A stretch of DNA of 60,592 nucleotides from an uncultured Candidatus Saccharibacteria bacterium (lineage in GTDB: Bacteria > Patescibacteriota > Saccharimonadia > Saccharimonadales > Saccharimonadaceae), in the NCBI GenBank assembly GCA_947303945.1, contig CAMYZS010000006.1, positions 1 to 60,592 of the forward strand. Direction: 5' to 3'. Under the pieces are notes generated by a model, which saw only the letters and a program-made list of their open reading frames with translations, had not been told where the DNA came from and did not search any database. Positions 10,670 through 52,079 of this stretch are shown here, in pieces; the first letter of the stretch is position 1; every line of letters begins with the position of its first letter. The translations under genes and the position numbers were made by a program.

Positions 10670-13411
10670 ATGAAGGTTCTTGCGGAAGATTGGCTTGCTC
10701 ATTATGGAACTCCTCAGGAGTTCGATGGAGATCCACATGGTTCAGGTAGATATCGTCAAGGTTCTGGTGATAATCCTTATCAACATGCTCGAGACTTTAA
10801 AGACCGAGTTGCTGCGATAAAAAGGGAGAATCCTGGAATAAAAGAAAAAGAGCTCGTTAAGTATCTTATTGATGACGGTTATGGCGATGAAGTTGAAGAT
10901 GAGAATGGAAACAAAAAGAGAGAGCTTTCTATTCGTACATATCGTCAAATGATTACTAAAGCGAAAGCTGAAATCGATGCCGAAGATTATCGTAGGGCTA
11001 AGGTACTTCATGATGAACGTCAATGGTCCTATGAGGCAATTGGTAAAGAGCTGGGTCGTTCAGAATCCGGTGTCCGACAACTTTTGCAAAGAGACGCTGA
11101 ATTGAAAGCTAAGCGAATCAACACGACAGCCGATATGCTTAGAGAATCTTTGAATAGTCGCGGTGGATTTATTGATGTCGGTGCATATTCCGAAATGTAC
11201 ATAGGTGTCGGTCGAAGCAATCTTGATGCTGCCGTTAAGCAGTTGCATGATGAAGGATACGCGGTTATTAACGGTTCGGTTCGTCAGGTATTTGGACAGG
11301 GAAATACTACAGTTAAGGTCATCTGCCCTCCAGGAACGACAAAAGGCGAAGTGTTCAATCATTTTGACCAGATTCGTTTGCCGGTTGATATTCATGTCGA
11401 TGAGGACGGAAATCCTAAAAAACTTAGACCTGTCGAAAGTGTTTCGTCAGAACGAGTTCAAATTAAGTATGCGGAGGATGGCGGTGTTGCTAAAGACGGC
11501 GTTATCGAGCTTCGTCGCGGTGTTTCTGATATTGACCTCGGTAATTCGAATTATGCTCAGGTTCGAATTGCCGTTGATGGAACGCACTACCTTAAAGGTA
11601 TGGCCGTTTATGCTGACGACTTACCTGATGGAGTTGATATTCGTTTTAACACTAATAAGCATGTGGGCACTCCATTAAAAGACGTCTTGAAGCCAATGCA
11701 AGATCCGTCAAATGAGACGAATCCATTTGGTGCATCCATCGTTAGTCAGCGAGGAGTTCTCAACATCGTTAATGAAGAAGGCGATTGGAGCAAATGGTCA
11801 AAAACTTTGTCGTCTCAATTCTTGTCTAAACAGTTTGAACAGACGGCGAAGCGTCAGCTTAAGTTGACTGCGGATATTTCTAGAGCAGAGTTTGATGACA
11901 TCAAGTCGTTGACGAATCCGACACTTAAAAGATATTTGCTTCAGCAATTTGCAAATAGTTGCGACGCCGATGCCGTTCATCTTAAAGCCGTTCGTCTTCC
12001 AGGACAGACGCAAAAAGTTCTTTTACCTCTTCCTGATATTGCTGAAAACAAATGCTATTGTCCTAGTCTTCCCAATGGTACAGAAGTGGCCCTGGTCAGA
12101 TATCCGCATGGTGGCGTTTTTGAGATTCCAAAACTTATTGTTGATAACAACAATCAAGAAGGGAAAAAGATATTTGGAAATGCTCAAGATGCCATAGGCA
12201 TTTCGCCAAAAGCTGCTGGTATTCTTTCTGGAGCAGACTTTGATGGCGACACAGCAATGGTTCTTCCGATAACAAAGCCTGATGGTACTCCAATTATTAA
12301 AATTAAGACCGCAAAACCATTAGAAGGGCTTAAAGATTTTGAGCCAAAAGAAATGTATCGAGGAGACCATCTTCCTGAAAAAGATTTGATGAAGAAGACT
12401 CGTGTTCAGACAGAAATGGGAATGATATCTAATCTGATTACGGACATGACGATACAGGGCGCAACTGATGAGGAATTGGCTCGAGCTGTTCGGCATTCTA
12501 TGGTTGTAATCGATGCTCATAAGCATAAGCTGGATTATAAAGCATCTGCGAGAGATAATCGTATTGCAGAATTGAAGAAGAAGTATCAGCCAAACGGTGG
12601 GGCGAGTACAGTTATATCTTCTGCAAAGAGTCGCACTTATTATTATGACCGACGAGAAAAAGCTGTGTCTAAACTTACCCCAGAAGAGCGAGAGCGTTGG
12701 GAACGCGGCGAAATAATATGGGAGCCTACCGGTAAAATGGTTTATAACAAGACTACCGGACAATACGACAAGCCTATGCAACATCGTAGTACAAAGATGT
12801 ATGAAACTTCCGATGCGTATGATCTTTCTTCAGGTATGGCGATTGAGAAATATTATGCAGATTATGCAAATTCTATGAAAGCCCTTGCCAATGAAGCTCG
12901 TGCCGAACTTCGCAGGACTCCTAAAATGGAATATAGTCCGACTGCTAAGAAAACGTATTCTGAAGAAGTTGCTTCTCTTAACAGTAAGTTGAAGACTGCT
13001 CAGATGAATGCCCCACTTGAGCGAAAAGCCCAGACTCTTGCAAACTCTACTCTCAGGGTTGAATTTGCAGACCATCCGGAATACGATGACGGTCAAAAGA
13101 AAAAGGCGAAAAGTAGGCATTTGGAAGCGGCCAGGAATGCTGTCGGTGCTGGTAAAGAAAAGATCGACATAGAAGACCGTGAGTGGGAGGCTATACAGGC
13201 TGGCGCTATATCGGACTCTAAGGCTCTAGAAATTTTCTCAAATTCAGATTCCAAATTAATCAGACAGCGTGCCATGCCTAGAGCCAACTCAATCAGTCAG
13301 GCCAAGCTTTCTAAAGCTAGAGCTCTTCTTAAGAATGATGCATGGACTTGGGCTGAAGTGGCCGAGATGCTCGGCGTCTCCGTATCAGGTCTTCAAAATG
13401 CTCTTGGTTGA
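10670..13411 (+). CDS. Candidate single-chain two-barrel (DFDGD) RNA polymerase
   Basis: The 913-aa protein contains GADFDGDTAMV with D523, D525 and D527, the metal-binding loop of the RNA polymerase beta' subunit and of single-chain two-barrel polymerases such as SPbeta YonO. About 45 residues upstream, VRYPHGGVFEIP (R477, P479, H480) matches the beta' NRxPxxH segment in order and spacing. A conserved-looking lysine-rich block (GDWSKWSKTLSSQ, then LSKQ, from 371) could belong to the first barrel. HTH segments lie near residues 117-142 and 885-910. The N-terminus (HYGTP, then GSGRY, NPYQH) recalls tags on neighbouring structural proteins. Activity is inferred from motifs. Confidence 0.7.
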   Translation: MKVLAEDWLAHYGTPQEFDGDPHGSGRYRQGSGDNPYQHARDFKDRVAAIKRENPGIKEKELVKYLIDDGYGDEVEDENGNKKRELSIRTYRQMITKAKAEIDAEDYRRAKVLHDERQWSYEAIGKELGRSESGVRQLLQRDAELKAKRINTTADMLRESLNSRGGFIDVGAYSEMYIGVGRSNLDAAVKQLHDEGYAVINGSVRQVFGQGNTTVKVICPPGTTKGEVFNHFDQIRLPVDIHVDEDGNPKKLRPVESVSSERVQIKYAEDGGVAKDGVIELRRGVSDIDLGNSNYAQVRIAVDGTHYLKGMAVYADDLPDGVDIRFNTNKHVGTPLKDVLKPMQDPSNETNPFGASIVSQRGVLNIVNEEGDWSKWSKTLSSQFLSKQFEQTAKRQLKLTADISRAEFDDIKSLTNPTLKRYLLQQFANSCDADAVHLKAVRLPGQTQKVLLPLPDIAENKCYCPSLPNGTEVALVRYPHGGVFEIPKLIVDNNNQEGKKIFGNAQDAIGISPKAAGILSGADFDGDTAMVLPITKPDGTPIIKIKTAKPLEGLKDFEPKEMYRGDHLPEKDLMKKTRVQTEMGMISNLITDMTIQGATDEELARAVRHSMVVIDAHKHKLDYKASARDNRIAELKKKYQPNGGASTVISSAKSRTYYYDRREKAVSKLTPEERERWERGEIIWEPTGKMVYNKTTGQYDKPMQHRSTKMYETSDAYDLSSGMAIEKYYADYANSMKALANEARAELRRTPKMEYSPTAKKTYSEEVASLNSKLKTAQMNAPLERKAQTLANSTLRVEFADHPEYDDGQKKKAKSRHLEAARNAVGAGKEKIDIEDREWEAIQAGAISDSKALEIFSNSDSKLIRQRAMPRANSISQAKLSKARALLKNDAWTWAEVAEMLGVSVSGLQNALG

Positions 13412-13428: not shown

Positions 13429-13665
13429 ATGAAACAGTATCTCCTCACAACCAATGACAATCCGTATCATCCGGCAGACCAATATGAAGAGTGGCGTCGA
13501 TATGACATGGAGCATGGTTATTATACAGAGCAGCGATTGGCTAGGGTTGCTTCGACTTCATATGACCTAACTGATTTGGAGAATCAGCGAAACATAAACG
13601 CTGCTGTGAATGACTTCATTCGTCTCGATAGACTTGGTCTGTACAAGCGAGTAGTCGTTGAATAA
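13429..13665 (+). CDS. Small conserved phage protein
   Basis: The 78-aa protein MKQYLLTTNDNPYHP... has an aromatic N-terminus and a helical C-terminus. It starts at ATG 13429 behind GGAGGTGAG, directly after the RNA polymerase-like gene, and is the last gene before the large non-coding region. Similar short proteins are familiar beside such genes in gut phages, but no function is known to me. Confidence 0.75.
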   Translation: MKQYLLTTNDNPYHPADQYEEWRRYDMEHGYYTEQRLARVASTSYDLTDLENQRNINAAVNDFIRLDRLGLYKRVVVE

Positions 13666-13673
13666 TTGTGGAA

Positions 13674-13697
13674 ATCTTGCAAAGAGAGTTTTGTAAG
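13674..13697 (+). repeat. CTTGCAAAG-N4-CTTTGTC hairpin repeat, copy 1
   Basis: ATCTTGCAAAGAGAGTTTTG: the CAAAG stem pairs with TTTTG through one G-U around AGAG. Confidence 0.6.
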
Positions 13698-13926
13698 GGT
13701 ATCTAAACATCAGCATAGAACTCGCGCTATTTAAGAGTGTATATACGCCTCTCTAATAAGGCTCGTATATAGGCTTTATTAGCGCGAGTTCTATGCTATT
13801 TAAACGACTGATACTATGCTGGGTATGTATAGAGTCCTATACACAATACTATGTATATGCGTGTTGGTATCTACATAGTGGGCAGTCTATGTACCTATAT
13901 GTTTATTAAAAGGATTATACCCAGTA

Positions 13927-13950
13927 ATCTTGCAAAGAACTCTTTGTCAT
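13927..13950 (+). repeat. CTTGCAAAG-N4-CTTTGTC hairpin repeat, copy 2
   Basis: CAAAG-AACT-CTTTG is fully paired, and can extend to CAAAGA/TCTTTG. Same strand as the other copies. Confidence 0.6.
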
Positions 13951-14166
13951 ATGTTAATCAGCCCCATCTATGGTAAGCACAGAGCATACATAGGCGATTA
14001 ATTGGTAGTATGTATGTTATTAATAGCATACAGTATGTGCTTGTCCATTCATTAAGGCCCTTAATCGGCTCTAATGATCTCAATTGAATGAAAATACCCA
14101 GGCCCCTAGCATTCGTTTATCGAAATTTAGTCATGGTTTACAAAATTTCGTGTAAGGAGGACTAAA

Positions 14167-14190
14167 ATCTTGCAAAGAAAACTTTGTCAG
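14167..14190 (+). repeat. CTTGCAAAG-N4-CTTTGTC hairpin repeat, copy 3
   Basis: CAAAG-AAAA-CTTTG, fully paired, followed by TCAG. Confidence 0.6.
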
Positions 14191-14239
14191 GACCTGAAAG
14201 AGACCGAAAATTTTGTAAAAATCGATGGGAGGGGGTACA

Positions 14240-14263
14240 TTCTTGCAAAGAAAACGTTGTCGT
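14240..14263 (+). repeat. CTTGCAAAG-N4-CTTTGTC hairpin repeat, copy 4
   Basis: CAAAG-AAAA-CGTTG carries one mismatch in the stem; the flanking TCTTG and GTC are kept. Confidence 0.55.
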
Positions 14264-14314
14264 CATCGCCGCCCTCCTTAAAATTTCCCCGGGGGTAGAT
14301 TTGAAAATTGATAT

Positions 14315-14441
14315 TTAGTAGATTTTATGGGGGATGTAAGAGCCTTTCCGCTTTCAATCTCGAGGTCTTATCCTTTCTCTCCTCCATTGATGAGTACCAT
14401 ACTCCATGACTCCGCCTTACATCTCCCATAAAGTCTACTAA
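14315..14441 (+). repeat. 26-bp inverted repeat upstream of the small terminase gene
   Basis: Arms 14315-14340 and 14416-14441 pair over 26 positions; the only two non-Watson-Crick positions are both G-U wobbles in RNA. The 75-base loop holds GAGT/ACTC (14391-14404). The right arm ends 43 bases before the terminase gene. Confidence 0.75.
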
Positions 14442-14484
14442 TTTTTATTAATTCTGTATAATTCGCAAGCGAAAGGAGGTAAAA

Positions 14485-14802
14485 GTGCCTAGAAAAAGAC
14501 CGCCGGCTCAGAGTCCAGAGGCTCGCGAGAACCAATTGATTAACGCAGCTGTCGATTTGGCCGAACAACAGCTTCGCGATGGTACTGCATCTCCTTCTGT
14601 TATTACTCATTTTCTAAAATTAGCGTCTACTAAGCAACAACTTGAGATTGAAAAGCTAAAAAGCGAAACTGAATTTCTTCGAGCAAAAGCTGACGCAGTT
14701 CAATCTAATCAGAGAAGCGAAGAACTTTATGCCGAAGCCATTGCTGCGATGAAACGATACAGCGGAGTGGAGGAAGATTATTATGCGGAAGAGGTCTTAT
14801 AG
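14485..14802 (+). CDS. Terminase small subunit (putative)
   Basis: The 105-aa, mostly helical, charged protein (MPRKRPPAQSPEAREN..., LKLASTKQQLEIEKLKSE coiled coil) fits the size and make-up of small terminase subunits, which recognise phage DNA for packaging. It starts at GTG 14485 behind AAAGGAGGT, first after the large non-coding region, and overlaps the HNH gene. The call rests on position and composition. Confidence 0.65.
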   Translation: MPRKRPPAQSPEARENQLINAAVDLAEQQLRDGTASPSVITHFLKLASTKQQLEIEKLKSETEFLRAKADAVQSNQRSEELYAEAIAAMKRYSGVEEDYYAEEVL

Positions 14803-15196
14803 CGAATTACTTCAACTAGATTCGTTTGAAGACCGCTACCGATATTTAAAACTTTCTGGAGAAGTCGGAAATCCTACGTTTGGATATGATCGATATTTTA
14901 ACCAGTTATTTTACCATTCATCCGAGTGGCGAAGAGCCCGAAACGGTATAATACTTCGAGATAATGGATGCGATTTGGGAATTAAAGATTGCGAGATACA
15001 TGGCCGAATCTATATTCATCATATCAATCCTATTACGAAGGCTGACGTTGAGAATTTCAGTGATAATCTATTTGATCCTGATAATCTTATATGCGTAACT
15101 TTCAATACGCACAATGCAATTCACTATGGAGATGAGCGTTCTTTACCTCAGACTCCAATAGCTAGGGCTCCTGGAGACACATGCCCTTGGAGGTAA
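14783..15196 (+). CDS. HNH endonuclease
   Basis: The 137-aa protein ends in an HNH fold: YIHHINPI (histidine pair), DPDNLICV, then FNTHNAIHYG. HNH nucleases beside terminase genes are often needed for cos cleavage and packaging in HK97-like phages. The zinc-binding CxxC pairs seen in some HNH proteins are absent; single cysteines flank the domain. It overlaps the small terminase by 20 bases. Confidence 0.85.
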   Translation: MRKRSYSELLQLDSFEDRYRYLKLSGEVGNPTFGYDRYFNQLFYHSSEWRRARNGIILRDNGCDLGIKDCEIHGRIYIHHINPITKADVENFSDNLFDPDNLICVTFNTHNAIHYGDERSLPQTPIARAPGDTCPWR

Positions 15197-15197
15197 T

Positions 15198-15554
15198 ATG
15201 GATAGTATTTTAAATAGTGTTAAAGCTTATCTTGGAATTATGGAAGAAGACGAATCTTTCGACTCCGATCTTATAATCGCAATTAATGCTGTAATGTTTG
15301 TTCTTAATCAGTTTGGAGTAGGACCATCAAGTCCTTTTATTGTTGAGGATTCTACTCAGACGTGGGTGGACCTTCTAGGAGAAGATCCAATAGGTTTGAT
15401 TAGACAATATGTAGGGATGAGGGTTAAACTTATTTTTGATCCGCCAACAAGCACATATGTTTCTCAGGCCCTTAATGAACAAATTGATGAATTGGAATGG
15501 CGAATCATCGCCGAAGTTGACAAGAAAGCTTATGAGGCGATGAATAATGAGTGA
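15198..15554 (+). CDS. Head-tail connector (HK97 gp6-like)
   Basis: The 118-aa protein starts MDSILNSVKAYLGI and continues EDESFDSDLIIAINAVMFVL, matching the helix pattern of the HK97 gp6/phi-adaptor family that forms a ring under the portal. GGAGGT precedes ATG 15198. Its place between the HNH and large terminase genes is unusual for lambda-like order but seen in related gut phages. Confidence 0.65.
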   Translation: MDSILNSVKAYLGIMEEDESFDSDLIIAINAVMFVLNQFGVGPSSPFIVEDSTQTWVDLLGEDPIGLIRQYVGMRVKLIFDPPTSTYVSQALNEQIDELEWRIIAEVDKKAYEAMNNE

Positions 15555-16623
15555 ATTATATCATTGGGGAATAACTGGCATGAAATGGGGCTTTCGACGC
15601 TTTCAAAACGAAGATGGCTCTTTAACGTCAGCAGGACGTGAGCGTTACGGTGTCGGTGCGGAACGAGCTAGTAAGAAACATTCAAAAGCAGGGATGGTAG
15701 GGCTCGAAGCTAAATACCAAGCCAAGCGAGCTGTGAAATCCGTCAAAAAGACCGCGTCTGAACTCGACGAAGCTCGTATTAATAATGCTCGTCGTCGTGT
15801 TTCGGCCTTAGTTGATAAGCGTGATCGCATTCAAGAAAAGGCTTTTCTTAAGGAGCAAGAAAAAGCTCTTAAGAAAGATATGAAGAAAGTAAAGAAGGAC
15901 GCTGAGAAAGAAGCTAAGGGCAAATTTTCAATCAAAAAGATAAAAGATTTAAGTGATGAAGAAATTTCAGCTCGAATAAATCGTCTTAAGCGAGAGGGAG
16001 AACTTCTAAACCTCGAAGCTTCTCGAAACATGTCCCCCGGCATGAAAGCGTTTGCAGATGCCATTTCAGGAGCAGCCACAGAAGCAACAAAAGGTCTTGC
16101 TAAGGATGCTGTTACTGCTCTTGGTAGCAAGTTTTTAAAGGATATCGGATTAGATTTAAATGACAAATCCATTAAGGAAGCAAGCGACGCTGCGAGTTTG
16201 ATTCGAAAACAGCTCGATCAAATGAAAGCACAAGACGAGTATAACGATTATGTTCTTACTCGTAAAGCTACGACTGATGCTGAGAGGCTTCGCGGCGCAA
16301 GGCTTTCGGAGAAGGCTAAGCGATATCAAAATATGCAGAACATCGCCAATGCTCGAAAAGCCATCGAAGGTGATCCCGACGATGAACTTGCCAGGGAAGC
16401 AAAGCGTTGGCAAAACGCCCAGACTATAGCGAACGCTAAGAGGTCGCTGGAGCCTAAAGAATCTGCTGAGGATGCTGGAAAACGACAAACTCAGCGAATA
16501 AATGAACGTAAAGAGATGGAGCGTCGTGTTAAGGCGTATCGAAAGAACGACGTTCCTTTTGAGGAAATAGCTCGAAGGCTCGGGATAACAATAGACCAGG
16601 CGAAAGACCTTAATTACGAGTAA
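15547..16623 (+). CDS. Structural-region protein with YHWGITGMKWG tag and C-terminal HTH
   Basis: The 358-aa protein opens with LYHWGITGMKWGFRR and SLTSAGRERYG, a motif shared with the protein at 18381. The middle is highly charged and helical (about 50-300), with a repeated unit AKRYQNMQNIANARKAI / AKRWQNAQTIANAKRSL. The end looks like an HTH (FEEIARRLGITIDQA). It overlaps the connector gene by 8 bases. A role in head assembly or delivery with the DNA is inference; function unknown. Confidence 0.65.
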   Translation: MSELYHWGITGMKWGFRRFQNEDGSLTSAGRERYGVGAERASKKHSKAGMVGLEAKYQAKRAVKSVKKTASELDEARINNARRRVSALVDKRDRIQEKAFLKEQEKALKKDMKKVKKDAEKEAKGKFSIKKIKDLSDEEISARINRLKREGELLNLEASRNMSPGMKAFADAISGAATEATKGLAKDAVTALGSKFLKDIGLDLNDKSIKEASDAASLIRKQLDQMKAQDEYNDYVLTRKATTDAERLRGARLSEKAKRYQNMQNIANARKAIEGDPDDELAREAKRWQNAQTIANAKRSLEPKESAEDAGKRQTQRINERKEMERRVKAYRKNDVPFEEIARRLGITIDQAKDLNYE

Positions 16624-16638
16624 CTAGGTAGGTGACAA

Positions 16639-18381
16639 ATGCCCCTTTCAAACACAGCAACGCCAAAATACTATGGAATGTTTCGCGATGCAGTGTTACG
16701 AGGGGACATTCCGGTATGTGAAGAAATCTCTATGGAGATGAATCGCATTGACGCACTTATTGAGAATCCAGGAGTCTATTACGACGAACTCGCAATGGAC
16801 GGCTATGTTAGATTTTGCGAAGATGAGTGCACGCTTACTGACGGTTCGGATTTGAATCTTCTCGACACATTTAAGCTTTGGGCGGAACAGGTTTTCTGCT
16901 GGTGTTACTTTGTTGAGCGATCGGTTTATGAGCCGAATGACGACGGACATGGCGGCCATTGGGTTAAGAAGATTCGTAAGAAGCGATTGACAAACAAGCA
17001 ATATTTGATTGTTGCCCGAGGTGCCGCTAAGTCTATGTATGGTTCAACGATTCAGAACTTTTTCTTGAATGTTGACACCGACACTACACATCAGATTACT
17101 ACTGCACCAACAATGAAGCAGGCGGAAGAGGTTCTATCTCCCATTCGAACCGCAATCGCAAGATCTCGTGGTCCTTTGTTCAAATTCCTAACCGAAGGAT
17201 CAATTCAGAATACGACGGGAAGTAAGGCAAATCGTCAAAAACTTGCGTCAACTAAGAAGGGAATAGAAAACTTTTTGACTGGTTCCCTTCTTGAGGCGCG
17301 TCCTATGTCGATTGATAAGCTTCAGGGTCTTCGTCCTAAGATTTCAACCGTAGACGAGTGGCTTTCTGGCGATGTTCGAGAAGACGTAATTGGCGCAATC
17401 GAGCAGGGTGCGTCTAAGATGGATGACTACTTGATTGTCGCTATGTCTTCCGAAGGAACTGTGCGAAACGGCTCTGGAGACTCCATCAAGATGGAGCTCA
17501 TGAAAATTCTCAAGGGTGAATACGTTAATCCACATGTGTCTATTTGGTATTATCGAATTGATAAAATAGAGGAAGTTGCTAATCCAGACATGTGGGTAAA
17601 AGCTCAGCCTAATATTGGTCTGACCGTTAGTTATGAGACATACCAGCTTGATGTTGATAGAGCTGAGAAGGCTCCTGCTGCGCGAAACGATATTTTGGCA
17701 AAGCGTTTTGGTATTCCAATGGAGGGTTATACCTACTTTTTCCGTTACGAGGAGACTCTTCCGCATCCAAGACAAGATTACTGGGGTCTTCCATGTGCTT
17801 TGGGTGCTGACCTATCGCAAGGAGATGACTTCTGTGCTTTTACTTTCATGTTTCCTCTTCCTGGTGGGTTTGGAGTTAAGACTCGTTGTTATATTACTTC
17901 TCGTACGCTTGATCGTCTTCCTGGTGCAATGCGTCTCAAGTATGACGAGTTTCTTCAAGAAGGTTCCTTGGTGGTTTTGGATGGTACTATTCTTGATATG
18001 ATGGACGTATACGAAGACGTTGATCGCTACATCATTCAATCTGACTATGACGTTCGTTCGTTTGGATTCGATCCGTATAACGCAAAGCAGTTTGTCGACC
18101 GATGGGAATCTGAGAATGGTCCATATGGTATAACCAAAGTCATTCAGGGTGCCAAAACCGAGTCGGTTCCTCTGGGTGAGTTGAAGAAACTTGCTGAGGA
18201 TCGAGTTCTTATGTTTGATGAACAGCTTATGATGTTCTGTATGGGAAACGCGATTGTTATTGAGGACACGAATGGCAATCGAAAGCTTCTGAAAACCCGT
18301 TATGATCAAAAGATTGACGCTGTGTCTGCTTTGATGGATGCATATGTCAGTTGGTCTGTGAATAGAGAGTTGTTTGAATAA
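16639..18381 (+). CDS. Terminase large subunit
   Basis: The 580-aa packaging motor and nuclease has Walker A ARGAAKS (126-132), a Walker B-like segment ending VDEW (238-241) and an RNase H-like nuclease core: GADLSQGDD near 390, FDPYNAKQ near 476, and QKIDAVSALMDA near the end. These match HK97-type TerL proteins. AGGTAGGTG precedes ATG 16639, and the stop overlaps the next start by one base. Confidence 0.95.
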   Translation: MPLSNTATPKYYGMFRDAVLRGDIPVCEEISMEMNRIDALIENPGVYYDELAMDGYVRFCEDECTLTDGSDLNLLDTFKLWAEQVFCWCYFVERSVYEPNDDGHGGHWVKKIRKKRLTNKQYLIVARGAAKSMYGSTIQNFFLNVDTDTTHQITTAPTMKQAEEVLSPIRTAIARSRGPLFKFLTEGSIQNTTGSKANRQKLASTKKGIENFLTGSLLEARPMSIDKLQGLRPKISTVDEWLSGDVREDVIGAIEQGASKMDDYLIVAMSSEGTVRNGSGDSIKMELMKILKGEYVNPHVSIWYYRIDKIEEVANPDMWVKAQPNIGLTVSYETYQLDVDRAEKAPAARNDILAKRFGIPMEGYTYFFRYEETLPHPRQDYWGLPCALGADLSQGDDFCAFTFMFPLPGGFGVKTRCYITSRTLDRLPGAMRLKYDEFLQEGSLVVLDGTILDMMDVYEDVDRYIIQSDYDVRSFGFDPYNAKQFVDRWESENGPYGITKVIQGAKTESVPLGELKKLAEDRVLMFDEQLMMFCMGNAIVIEDTNGNRKLLKTRYDQKIDAVSALMDAYVSWSVNRELFE

Positions 18382-18968
18382 TGAGTGAATTGTATCACTG
18401 GGGTATTAAAGGAATGCGATGGGGTGTTAGAAACTATCAGAATCTCGATGGTTCCTTAACTACTGCCGGACGAATTAGGTATGGTGTTGAAAAACCAAAC
18501 GGCGGCGTGTTTGATAGTTCTAATAGTCTATCAAAGCGTGCGAAACGACTCAGTAAGTTTGGAACTGAGCTTGCTAAGGCAAAAACCTATCAGTATACAA
18601 ATGCCGGTCGCTATAAAGTTCGCAAAGCTAGGTCTGAAGTTGCTCGTATGATTAGAGGAAAAGAAGCAAATCGACAAATAGCCAAGGCTAATAGACGCCA
18701 TCAATTGGATTATAAAATCTCTAGAGCTCAGGCAAAAGGTTTTATCGATCATTTGGCTGGTAGTACATATCAGAGCGTATTTAATGCCAGTAATGCACGA
18801 TTTAAAAGCCGAATCTCTGTTGGACAAAGATACGTCGAGTTATCGAAACGTTACGTTCCTCGTGGAGCGATTAATAAAATTAAATGGGATAATATTGAAA
18901 ATACTCTTCCTGAGATACGCATTGGGCGCGAAAGCTTGGCTGGTCTTACGAGAGTTAGGCTTCGATAA
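18381..18968 (+). CDS. Second YHWGIKGMRWG-tagged protein
   Basis: The 195-aa basic protein begins MSELYHWGIKGMRWGVRN and SLTTAGRIRYG, nearly the same tag as 15547-16623, but the rest is unrelated: a basic, helical region without a known domain. It sits between large terminase and portal. Tagged proteins of this kind recur in head modules of gut phages; a minor capsid or scaffold-linked role is likely but unproven. Confidence 0.65.
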   Translation: MSELYHWGIKGMRWGVRNYQNLDGSLTTAGRIRYGVEKPNGGVFDSSNSLSKRAKRLSKFGTELAKAKTYQYTNAGRYKVRKARSEVARMIRGKEANRQIAKANRRHQLDYKISRAQAKGFIDHLAGSTYQSVFNASNARFKSRISVGQRYVELSKRYVPRGAINKIKWDNIENTLPEIRIGRESLAGLTRVRLR

Positions 18969-25070: not shown

Positions 25071-25154
25071 GGGGATGTGGCGGAATGGCAGACGCAGGAG
25101 ACTTAAAATCTCTCGACTTTGGTCATGAGGGTTCGAATCCCTCCATCCCCACCA
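25071..25154 (+). tRNA. tRNA-Leu(UAA)
   Basis: Acceptor GGGGATG/CATCCCC; anticodon loop CTTAAAA gives UAA; there is a long class II variable arm; the T-loop is GGTTCGAATCC. CCA is encoded (25152-25154). Confidence 0.95.
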
Positions 25155-25155
25155 A

Positions 25156-25230
25156 GCCCTTGTAGCATAAAGGTAAGTGCAGCCGGCTCATAACCGGTGG
25201 ATCAAGGTTCGAGTCCTTGCTGGGGCACCA
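25156..25230 (+). tRNA. tRNA-Met(CAU)
   Basis: Anticodon loop CTCATAA gives CAU on a GCCGG/CCGGT stem; acceptor GCCC/GGGC with a wobble and one T-T mismatch inside; CCA encoded. Elongator Met is most likely; an Ile(CAU) tRNA needing lysidine cannot be excluded. Confidence 0.9.
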
Positions 25231-25233
25231 TAT

Positions 25234-25310
25234 GGGCCCGTAGCTCAGTAGGTTAGAGCAGGGGACTTTTAATCCCAAGGTCATGGGTTCGATTCCCATC
25301 GGGCCCACCA
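25234..25310 (+). tRNA. tRNA-Lys(UUU)
   Basis: Acceptor GGGCCCG/CGGGCCC, anticodon loop CTTTTAA gives UUU, T-loop GGTTCGATTCC, CCA encoded. Confidence 0.95.
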
Positions 25311-51996: not shown

Positions 51997-52016
51997 TTTT
52001 ACACACCCCTTAATGG
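51997..52016 (+). promoter_or_regulatory. Repeated phage element, copy 8
   Basis: TTTTACAC-ACCC-CTTAATGG; its last GG is the first GG of the tRNA-like fold. No ORF lies before the next element. Confidence 0.75.
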
Positions 52017-52079
52017 AAAGATTGGTGTAATTGGTAACACACGCATTGGCGAGTTGCAGGTTCGAATCCTGTTCTTTCT
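52015..52079 (+). ncRNA. tRNA-like RNA with shortened anticodon arm
   Basis: Acceptor GGAAAGA (52015-52021) pairs with TCTTTCT (52073-52079) over 7 bp. D-arm GTGT/ACAC (52025-52040) has GG in its loop. T-arm GCAGG-TTCGAAT-CCTGT (52056-52072) joins the acceptor in exact tRNA geometry. Where 17 bases of anticodon arm should be, only CGC-ATTG-GCG (52042-52051) fits, and no CCA is encoded. It cannot be a normal decoding tRNA as it stands. Confidence 0.65.

What the first reader, a model, noticed from the sequence alone, without database searches (positions are those of the whole stretch)
13674..14441. About 770 gene-free bases with multi-branch RNA-like folding before the terminase genes
Nested and side-by-side inverted repeats (18-bp arm, 8-bp junction-closing stem abutting a hairpin, two more junctions, and a 26-bp helix) fill the region. 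Size and style recall large phage RNAs such as GOLLD and ROOL, but position before the small terminase also fits a packaging site. No match to a named class can be claimed from reading.
Basis: partly seen in the sequence, partly recalled or inferred. Interest (0 to 1): 0.85.

Follow-up and report, generated by a model that had tools for sequence, protein, structure and literature searches.

The report
Phage cos ends with leader RNA hairpin
The gene-free stretch is where this phage's linear genome is cut and rejoined (its cos site); most of its hairpins are ordinary repetitive DNA, but the last one belongs to a widespread RNA hairpin absent from the Rfam catalogue that starts the late genes of many related phages, including culturable Lactococcus and Arthrobacter phages.

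Summary
In detail: 13666-14484 is gene-free and folds far better than shuffles (z -8), and the 18-bp arm and 26-bp helix exist. It is not one large ornate RNA.

It is the two joined ends of a cos phage genome. Relatives' contigs begin and end exactly here, and isolate records (DrGrey, Tanis, P078) confirm a 3' overhang of 9-10 nt: CGCCGCCCT, 14267-14275. 13666-14266 is the right end. Its inverted repeats show no strand preference (G-U 37, A-C 36) and are not conserved, so they look like DNA, not RNA.

14276-14484, the left end, is different: a 26-bp helix with a 75-nt loop that is a true plus-strand RNA element. In 73/93 phage leaders and 43/52 prophage leaders, G-U beats A-C 225:68 and 185:27; in 12 prophages 26/35 pairs have compensatory changes (0/500 shuffles). 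A covariance model built from Clostridia prophages alone finds the window element (47 bits, E 6e-10). Loops carry CUCCUUUC, the 16S anti-Shine-Dalgarno sequence. Rfam has no match.

Likely function (inferred): 5' leader of the late operon, controlling translation or processing. No expression data were available.

The parts
10670..13411 (+). YonO-like phage RNA polymerase gene (PHROG 'RNA-dependent RNA polymerase'), last large gene of the virion genome
   Evidence: phrog_4291, 1017 bits; same place at the right end of DrGrey, Tanis, P078, CHPC971 records
13429..13665 (+). conserved 78-aa ORF (phrog_4303), last gene before cos
   Evidence: same gene order in nearly all relatives that carry both
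13666..14266 (.). right end of the virion genome: non-coding, repeat-rich; expanded to about 600-840 nt in this clade, 20-525 nt in other relatives
   Evidence: strand-neutral inverted repeats, G-U 37 vs A-C 36
13712..13797 (.). largest right-end inverted repeat (18-bp perfect outer arm)
   Evidence: no homologous repeat in relatives
13676..14261 (+). four direct repeats CTTGCAAAGA-N3-CTTTGTC at 13676, 13929, 14169, 14242; relatives carry TTTGCGAAAT at the same place; candidate terminase-binding sites
   Evidence: function inferred
14227..14266 (.). cos core, right side: G-rich block GGGAGGGGG, repeat copy 4, then TCAT
   Evidence: block structure conserved in dozens of phages
14267..14275 (+). 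cosN: 9-nt 3' overhang CGCCGCCCT (10 nt if the following C is included, as in P078)
   Evidence: contig ends and isolate record ends; published 3' overhang of P078
14276..14295 (.). left end of the virion genome, CCTTAAAATTTCCCCGGGGG
   Evidence: 26 of 49 contigs with short upstream sequence start 8-13 nt before this core
14315..14441 (+). leader RNA hairpin: 26-bp helix 14315-14340/14416-14441, 75-nt loop 14341-14415
   Evidence: covariation, G-U bias, covariance-model hit 14278-14474, 47.2 bits
14372..14385 (+). CCTTTCTCTCCTCC in the apical loop, the anti-Shine-Dalgarno-like motif (consensus CTCCTTTC)
   Evidence: CTCCTTTC in 48/73 loops vs 0.6 expected; more often unpaired than the rest of the loop
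14471..14479 (+). Shine-Dalgarno sequence GAAAGGAGG of ORF1
   Evidence: sequence; conserved in A1
14485..14802 (+). ORF1, phrog_4259, 105 aa, two helices; candidate small terminase by position only
   Evidence: no PDB match
14783..15196 (+). HNH endonuclease beside cos
   Evidence: phrog_4321, E 4e-61
16639..18381 (+). large terminase
   Evidence: phrog_9 and TerL_nuclease PF20441

Best explanation
The stretch is the cos junction of a siphophage with a YonO-like RNA polymerase. Shown by comparison: (1) the genome is cut at 14267-14275 leaving a 3' overhang; (2) 13666-14266 is the DNA right end, with direct repeats beside cos and fast-changing, strand-neutral inverted repeats; (3) 14276-14484 is a leader whose 26-bp hairpin is a conserved plus-strand RNA structure with an exposed anti-Shine-Dalgarno-like loop, homologous to elements in many related phages and prophages. 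Inferred: once the genome has circularised or formed concatemers, the late (terminase and structural) operon is transcribed across cos, as in lambda, and its mRNA carries this hairpin at the 5' end. The loop CUCCUUUC can pair with the downstream GAAAGGAGG and hold the first late gene in a poorly translated state until the rod-like helix is opened or cut (for example by RNase III). The direct repeats are probably small-terminase binding sites.
For: cos: contigs of relatives start at the homologous base and one nearly whole genome ends in TCAT, lacking exactly CGCCGCCCT; DrGrey, Tanis and P078 record ends agree; P078 3' overhang CGCCCCAGTC is published in PMC4110766; HNH and TerL adjacent. RNA: helix scores above the 99th percentile of shuffles in 73/93 leaders, G-U 225 vs A-C 68, 63 leaders against 3; second set 43/52 leaders, 185 vs 27, 39 against 1; right-end control 37 vs 36, contrast p 2e-5. 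Covariation 9/30 pairs in the close clade and 26/35 in 12 prophages, 0/500 shuffles, slides far lower. Model from prophages hits the window at 47.2 bits, sequence-only model 18.2. Loop motif 48/73 vs 0.6. Background windows pass the score in 10 of 598. Hairpin stays at the genome left end in Lactococcus phages where the ORF1 homologue lies over 1 kb downstream.
Against: No transcript data; promoter and start site unknown (the sigma-70 scan is at chance level). Loop pairs with its own downstream Shine-Dalgarno no better than with those of other phages (permutation p 0.93), so cognate masking is unproven. The hairpin was not found in the Streptomyces (DrGrey, Madamato), Gordonia (Tanis) and Curtobacterium (JoyLin) phages examined, so it is not essential to packaging across the family. 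The cos overhang of this particular phage is read by alignment, not measured.
Confidence: 0.6

Rival explanations
1. The leader hairpin is an RNase III processing site: the long, sequence-variable double helix is cut to free the late mRNA from transcripts that read through cos from the RNA polymerase gene. The loop motif would be secondary.
For: Helices of 25-45 bp with variable sequence and fixed architecture are what a length-dependent dsRNA nuclease needs; early and late blocks meet here.
Against: Does not explain the invariant, exposed CUCCUUUC loop.
Confidence: 0.25
2. The hairpin is a DNA element (cosB- or cosQ-like site, or cruciform) for terminase at the left end and is never used as RNA.
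For: Immediately beside cosN; lambda keeps terminase-binding sites in the same position (general knowledge).
Against: Strong excess of G-U over A-C pairs on the + strand in two independent sets, absent in the neighbouring right-end repeats; stem sequence not conserved as a protein site would be; absent from several relatives with the same cos core.
Confidence: 0.1
3. The whole 770-nt stretch is one large ornate non-coding RNA of the GOLLD/ROOL style.
For: Low folding energy over the whole stretch.
Against: No Rfam match; upstream helices have no strand bias and no homologues; length varies from about 20 to 840 nt between relatives; cos cuts through it.
Confidence: 0.03
4. The repeat-rich right end (13666-14266) is a replication origin with iterons rather than a set of terminase sites.
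For: AT-rich, direct repeats in one orientation, confined to this place.
Against: Most relatives have only 20-200 nt between the last gene and cos; the repeat core resembles the CGCAAAA motif inside the cos core of distant phages.
Confidence: 0.25

Closest known systems
HK97-type cos site (3' overhang, HNH gp74 and TerL)
   Same: 3' cohesive ends; HNH endonuclease and TerL next to cos; HK97 has 10-12-nt 3' overhangs and its HNH protein gp74 promotes cutting (PMC9410871)
   Different: Different core (G-rich block, CATCGC, CYCCGGGGG), repeat-rich right end, leader hairpin
cos ends of Lactococcus phages 1706/P078 and Streptomyces Rimavirus
   Same: Same core layout; YonO-like polymerase gene and small ORF at the right end, HNH and ORF1 family at the left; P078 published overhang CGCCCCAGTC
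   Different: Window overhang CGCCGCCCT; right end 600 nt instead of about 120-180; Rimavirus lacks the hairpin
GOLLD and ROOL phage RNAs
   Same: Phage-encoded, structured, non-coding
   Different: No model match; GOLLD/ROOL are multi-branch cage RNAs often near tRNAs (PMC12286853); here a single long rod at the genome end
YonO-transcribed late operon of SPbeta
   Same: A YonO-family polymerase; the SPbeta late operon begins upstream of yonK and of an unannotated non-coding RNA (PMC5467207)
   Different: Homology of that RNA was not tested here; SPbeta gene order differs
Translation-controlling mRNA leaders with an anti-Shine-Dalgarno strand
   Same: A leader sequence complementary to the downstream ribosome site
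   Different: Here the strand sits in the apical loop of a 25-45-bp helix and does not co-vary with the site

Membership tests
cos-type packaging site | unique genome ends at a fixed sequence | tested here: met
   26 of 49 contigs with short upstream sequence start at the homologous base; isolate genome records end there
cos-type packaging site | complementary single-stranded overhang | tested here: met
   by comparison: contig 3300031867_000066 lacks 9 nt between its ends, as expected if 3' overhangs are trimmed; P078 overhang published
cos-type packaging site | TerL and HNH adjacent | tested here: met
cos-type packaging site | cleavage by the phage's own terminase | not testable with these tools
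   needs biochemistry
GOLLD RNA (Rfam) | covariance-model match | tested here: not met
   none at gathering score nor at E<=5
GOLLD RNA (Rfam) | usual location by tRNA genes | tested here: not met
   nearest tRNA is 25071, over 10 kb away
ROOL RNA (Rfam) | covariance-model match | tested here: not met
any Rfam 15 family (leader hairpin) | gathering-score match in the window stretch or relatives | tested here: not met
   no match in the stretch nor in 36 relative sources
leader-hairpin RNA defined here (model R1) | covariance-model hit at the cos-proximal leader | tested here: met
   window 14278-14474, E 6.4e-10, best hit in the window; most of 42 other sources also hit there
leader-hairpin RNA defined here (model R1) | compensatory changes in the helix | tested here: met
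leader-hairpin RNA defined here (model R1) | transcribed during infection | not testable with these tools
   no RNA-seq available
lambda cosB (repeated terminase sites) | repeated motif near cosN bound by the small terminase | tested here: inconclusive
   repeats present; binding not testable
phi29 packaging RNA | match to that RNA's family model, if Rfam holds one | tested here: not met
   no Rfam family of any name reached its threshold in the stretch

The most novel reading that the evidence does not exclude
The leader hairpin is a distinct RNA class of cos phages that mimics the 3' end of 16S rRNA: a rod-like helix displaying an anti-Shine-Dalgarno loop that acts on ribosome sites in trans, on other phage or host mRNAs, or links translation of late genes to genome circularisation.
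Probability: 0.2. Interest if true: 0.85.

Novelty: new variant of a known kind. Interest (0 to 1): 0.62.

Why it matters
A structured RNA with exceptional covariation support starts the late operon of a large phage group spanning Lactococcus, Faecalibacterium, Arthrobacter and many gut Clostridia, and no Rfam model matches it. Culturable phages (P078, 1706, SEA-PHAGES Arthrobacter isolates) and prophages in type strains ([Ruminococcus] torques ATCC 27756, Hungatella hathewayi DSM 13479) make it testable at once. The G-U versus A-C count also gives a simple way to tell RNA hairpins from DNA inverted repeats at phage genome ends.

Tried and rejected
Rfam at gathering and at permissive thresholds: nothing credible; the miRNA hits are chance hairpins. 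Whole-stretch RNA: rejected on strand balance and lack of homologues. Phage-polymerase promoters: the repeats are confined to this region, not spread over operons. Minus-strand ORF behind the GAAAGGAG complement: only 15 of 67 sites have a start codon 3-13 nt downstream, no more than chance would give. Cognate loop to Shine-Dalgarno pairing: not better than non-cognate. ORF1 as small terminase by fold: no PDB match by sequence or structure. Pairwise-alignment covariation over distant leaders was uninformative because of poor alignments. Only the first 14 kb of the SPbeta record was fetched, without reaching yonK; not pursued. Sigma-70 promoter and terminator scan at chance level.

Full report
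What was checked. The stretch 13666-14484 lies between a 78-aa ORF (13429-13665) and a 105-aa ORF (14485-14802). It has no plus-strand ORF of 60 aa or more and folds with z -8 against shuffles. The 18-bp arm (13712-13729/13780-13797) and the 26-bp helix (14315-14340/14416-14441) are real. A 26-nt direct repeat with core CTTGCAAAGA occurs four times in one orientation, only here. Rfam gives nothing at gathering scores and only chance hairpins at E<=5.

Surroundings. Upstream is a 913-aa polymerase of the YonO kind (phrog_4291, labelled RNA-dependent RNA polymerase); downstream are ORF1 (phrog_4259), an HNH endonuclease (phrog_4321), a connector and the large terminase. The order polymerase, 78-aa ORF, cos recurs in nearly all relatives that carry these parts.

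The cos site. Of 49 IMG/VR contigs with short sequence upstream of the HNH gene, 26 begin 8-13 nt before a CYCCGG core homologous to window 14285-14295. Contig 3300031867_000066 (57.6 kb) begins CTTTAAATTTTCCCCGGGGG and ends TCAT; the relative L003, assembled across the junction, reads TCAT-CGCCGCCCT-CTTTGAATTTTCC. The missing 9 nt are what end repair removes from 3' overhangs (inference from standard library preparation). Genome records of isolates end and start at the same place: DrGrey ...GCATCGCCCGCCT / CCATATTTTTCC, Tanis ...GCATCGCCGCTCT / CCTGAAAAATG, P078 ...GCATCGCCCCAGTC / ATCCAAAA. For P078 the 3' overhang CGCCCCAGTC is published (PMC4110766). HK97, with an HNH protein that promotes cos cleavage, is the closest studied system (PMC9410871). 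The window cut is therefore placed at 14267-14275, 9 or 10 nt.

The right end, 13666-14266. In the window's clade (L003, L007, L008, L164, L089) the last gene and cos are about 600-840 nt apart; in other relatives about 20-525 nt. Sequences do not align between clade members, but each is rich in inverted repeats and in one short direct repeat: TTTGCGAAAT in L003, L007 and L008, CTTGCAAAGA in the window, TAATTGCTTAAA in L164. In two relatives' whole contigs the motif is almost confined to this place. To ask whether the inverted repeats act as RNA, stems were found with a score that penalises G-U and A-C mismatches alike; RNA selection leaves G-U, DNA does not care. The count is 37 G-U to 36 A-C: no sign of RNA. 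Distant phages carry a related CGCAAAA motif between G-rich and C-rich arms directly before the cut, and window copy 4 sits in that place, so terminase binding is the likeliest role (inference).

The left end, 14276-14484. Here the same test gives the opposite answer. Of 93 distinct leaders between cos and ORF1, 73 hold a helix above the 99th percentile of shuffles, with G-U 225 to A-C 68, and 63 leaders against 3 favour G-U (p 1e-15 before allowing for shared ancestry). Left against right end differs at p 2e-5. Windows elsewhere in the same genomes pass the score in 10 of 598 cases, a few of which overlap leaders or right ends themselves. In the close clade (7 sequences) 9 of 30 pairs show compensatory double changes, 93.8% of cells pair, 0 of 500 shuffles match, and slid partners fall to 35-52%.

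Independent set. A scan of GTDB genomes gave 54 loci with the HNH gene, mostly prophages of Clostridia, among them [Ruminococcus] torques ATCC 27756 and Hungatella hathewayi DSM 13479. Of 52 usable leaders 43 have the hairpin, G-U 185 to A-C 27, 39 leaders against 1, loop motif in 40. In a 12-sequence alignment 26 of 35 pairs have double changes (78 cells), 0 of 500 shuffles. A covariance model from these prophages finds the window leader at 14278-14474 with 47.2 bits, E 6.4e-10, the best hit in the window, and most phage leaders tested. The same alignment without structure scores 18.2 bits, so most of the signal is base pairing. Named isolates carry the hairpin too: Lactococcus 1706, CHPC971, P078, P118, P162; Arthrobacter Circum, Teacup, Lewando, Phaby, Salk; Faecalibacterium FP_oengus. 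It was not seen in Streptomyces DrGrey and Madamato, Gordonia Tanis or Curtobacterium JoyLin. In the Lactococcus phages the ORF1 homologue lies about 1.1-1.2 kb further downstream while the hairpin stays at the genome end, so it belongs to the end or to the operon start, not to ORF1.

The loop. CTCCTTTC is in 48 of 73 loops against 0.6 expected, while GGAGG and AAGGAG are absent. In the Clostridia alignment TTCTCCTTTC is invariant. It is predicted unpaired more than the rest of the loop (0.75 vs 0.52, 46 of 54), often at the tip of a small hairpin. It equals the anti-Shine-Dalgarno end of 16S rRNA (general knowledge) and is complementary to the GAAAGGAGG before ORF1. Cognate pairs are not better matched than shuffled ones, so it may serve any ribosome site, and masking of ORF1 remains a hypothesis. 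A loop-to-downstream pairing would be a pseudoknot, which the folding programs used cannot show.

Mechanism. Shown by comparison: cos position, right-end repeats, conserved plus-strand leader helix, conserved exposed loop. Inferred: transcription of the late operon across cos after the ends have joined, as in lambda; control of translation by the loop; opening or cutting of the helix as the switch. I put the anatomy (cos junction plus leader RNA) at about 0.93 and the translation-control mechanism at about 0.4. The YonO paper reports that the SPbeta late operon begins upstream of an unannotated non-coding RNA (PMC5467207), a suggestive parallel not tested here.

Limits. No transcript data; related sequences are not independent; the overhang of this phage is read by homology; the host is unknown: the window is binned with a 1.29-Mb assembly whose sampled genus and family relatives lack the polymerase gene and the hairpin.

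Noticed in passing
G000 contig C10 (52,420 bp), L229 and L301: A second phage of the same family lies in the same assembly: YonO-like polymerase 46% identical at C10:754-3363 (minus) and a leader-hairpin hit at C10:51760-51964 (minus, E 1.3e-9). The assembly is larger than its relatives, so both contigs may be binned phages rather than prophages.
   Followed up: partly
window 10670-13411: The polymerase is labelled 'RNA-dependent RNA polymerase' or 'helix-turn-helix protein' in public records; it belongs to the family PHROG calls RdRP, and I read it as YonO-like (single-chain DNA-dependent) from knowledge of that family.
   Followed up: partly
window 15547-16623 and 18381-18968: Two proteins of one PHROG family (phrog_32444) flank the large terminase gene, apparently a duplication.
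   Followed up: no
Arthrobacter phage leaders, e.g. L235 and L241, positions 1-700: Leaders hold two to four large hairpins in tandem, partly under annotated CDS (Circum gp1-2, Teacup gp1) that may be spurious.
   Followed up: partly
L164 6073-6298: Right end of a close relative carries about a dozen tandem copies of TAAATAATTGCT, a minisatellite-like form of the right-end repeat.
   Followed up: no
window 25071-25310: Three adjacent tRNA genes (Leu, Met, Lys); a fourth weaker tRNA-like match at 52016-52079 found by Rfam but not by ARAGORN.
   Followed up: no
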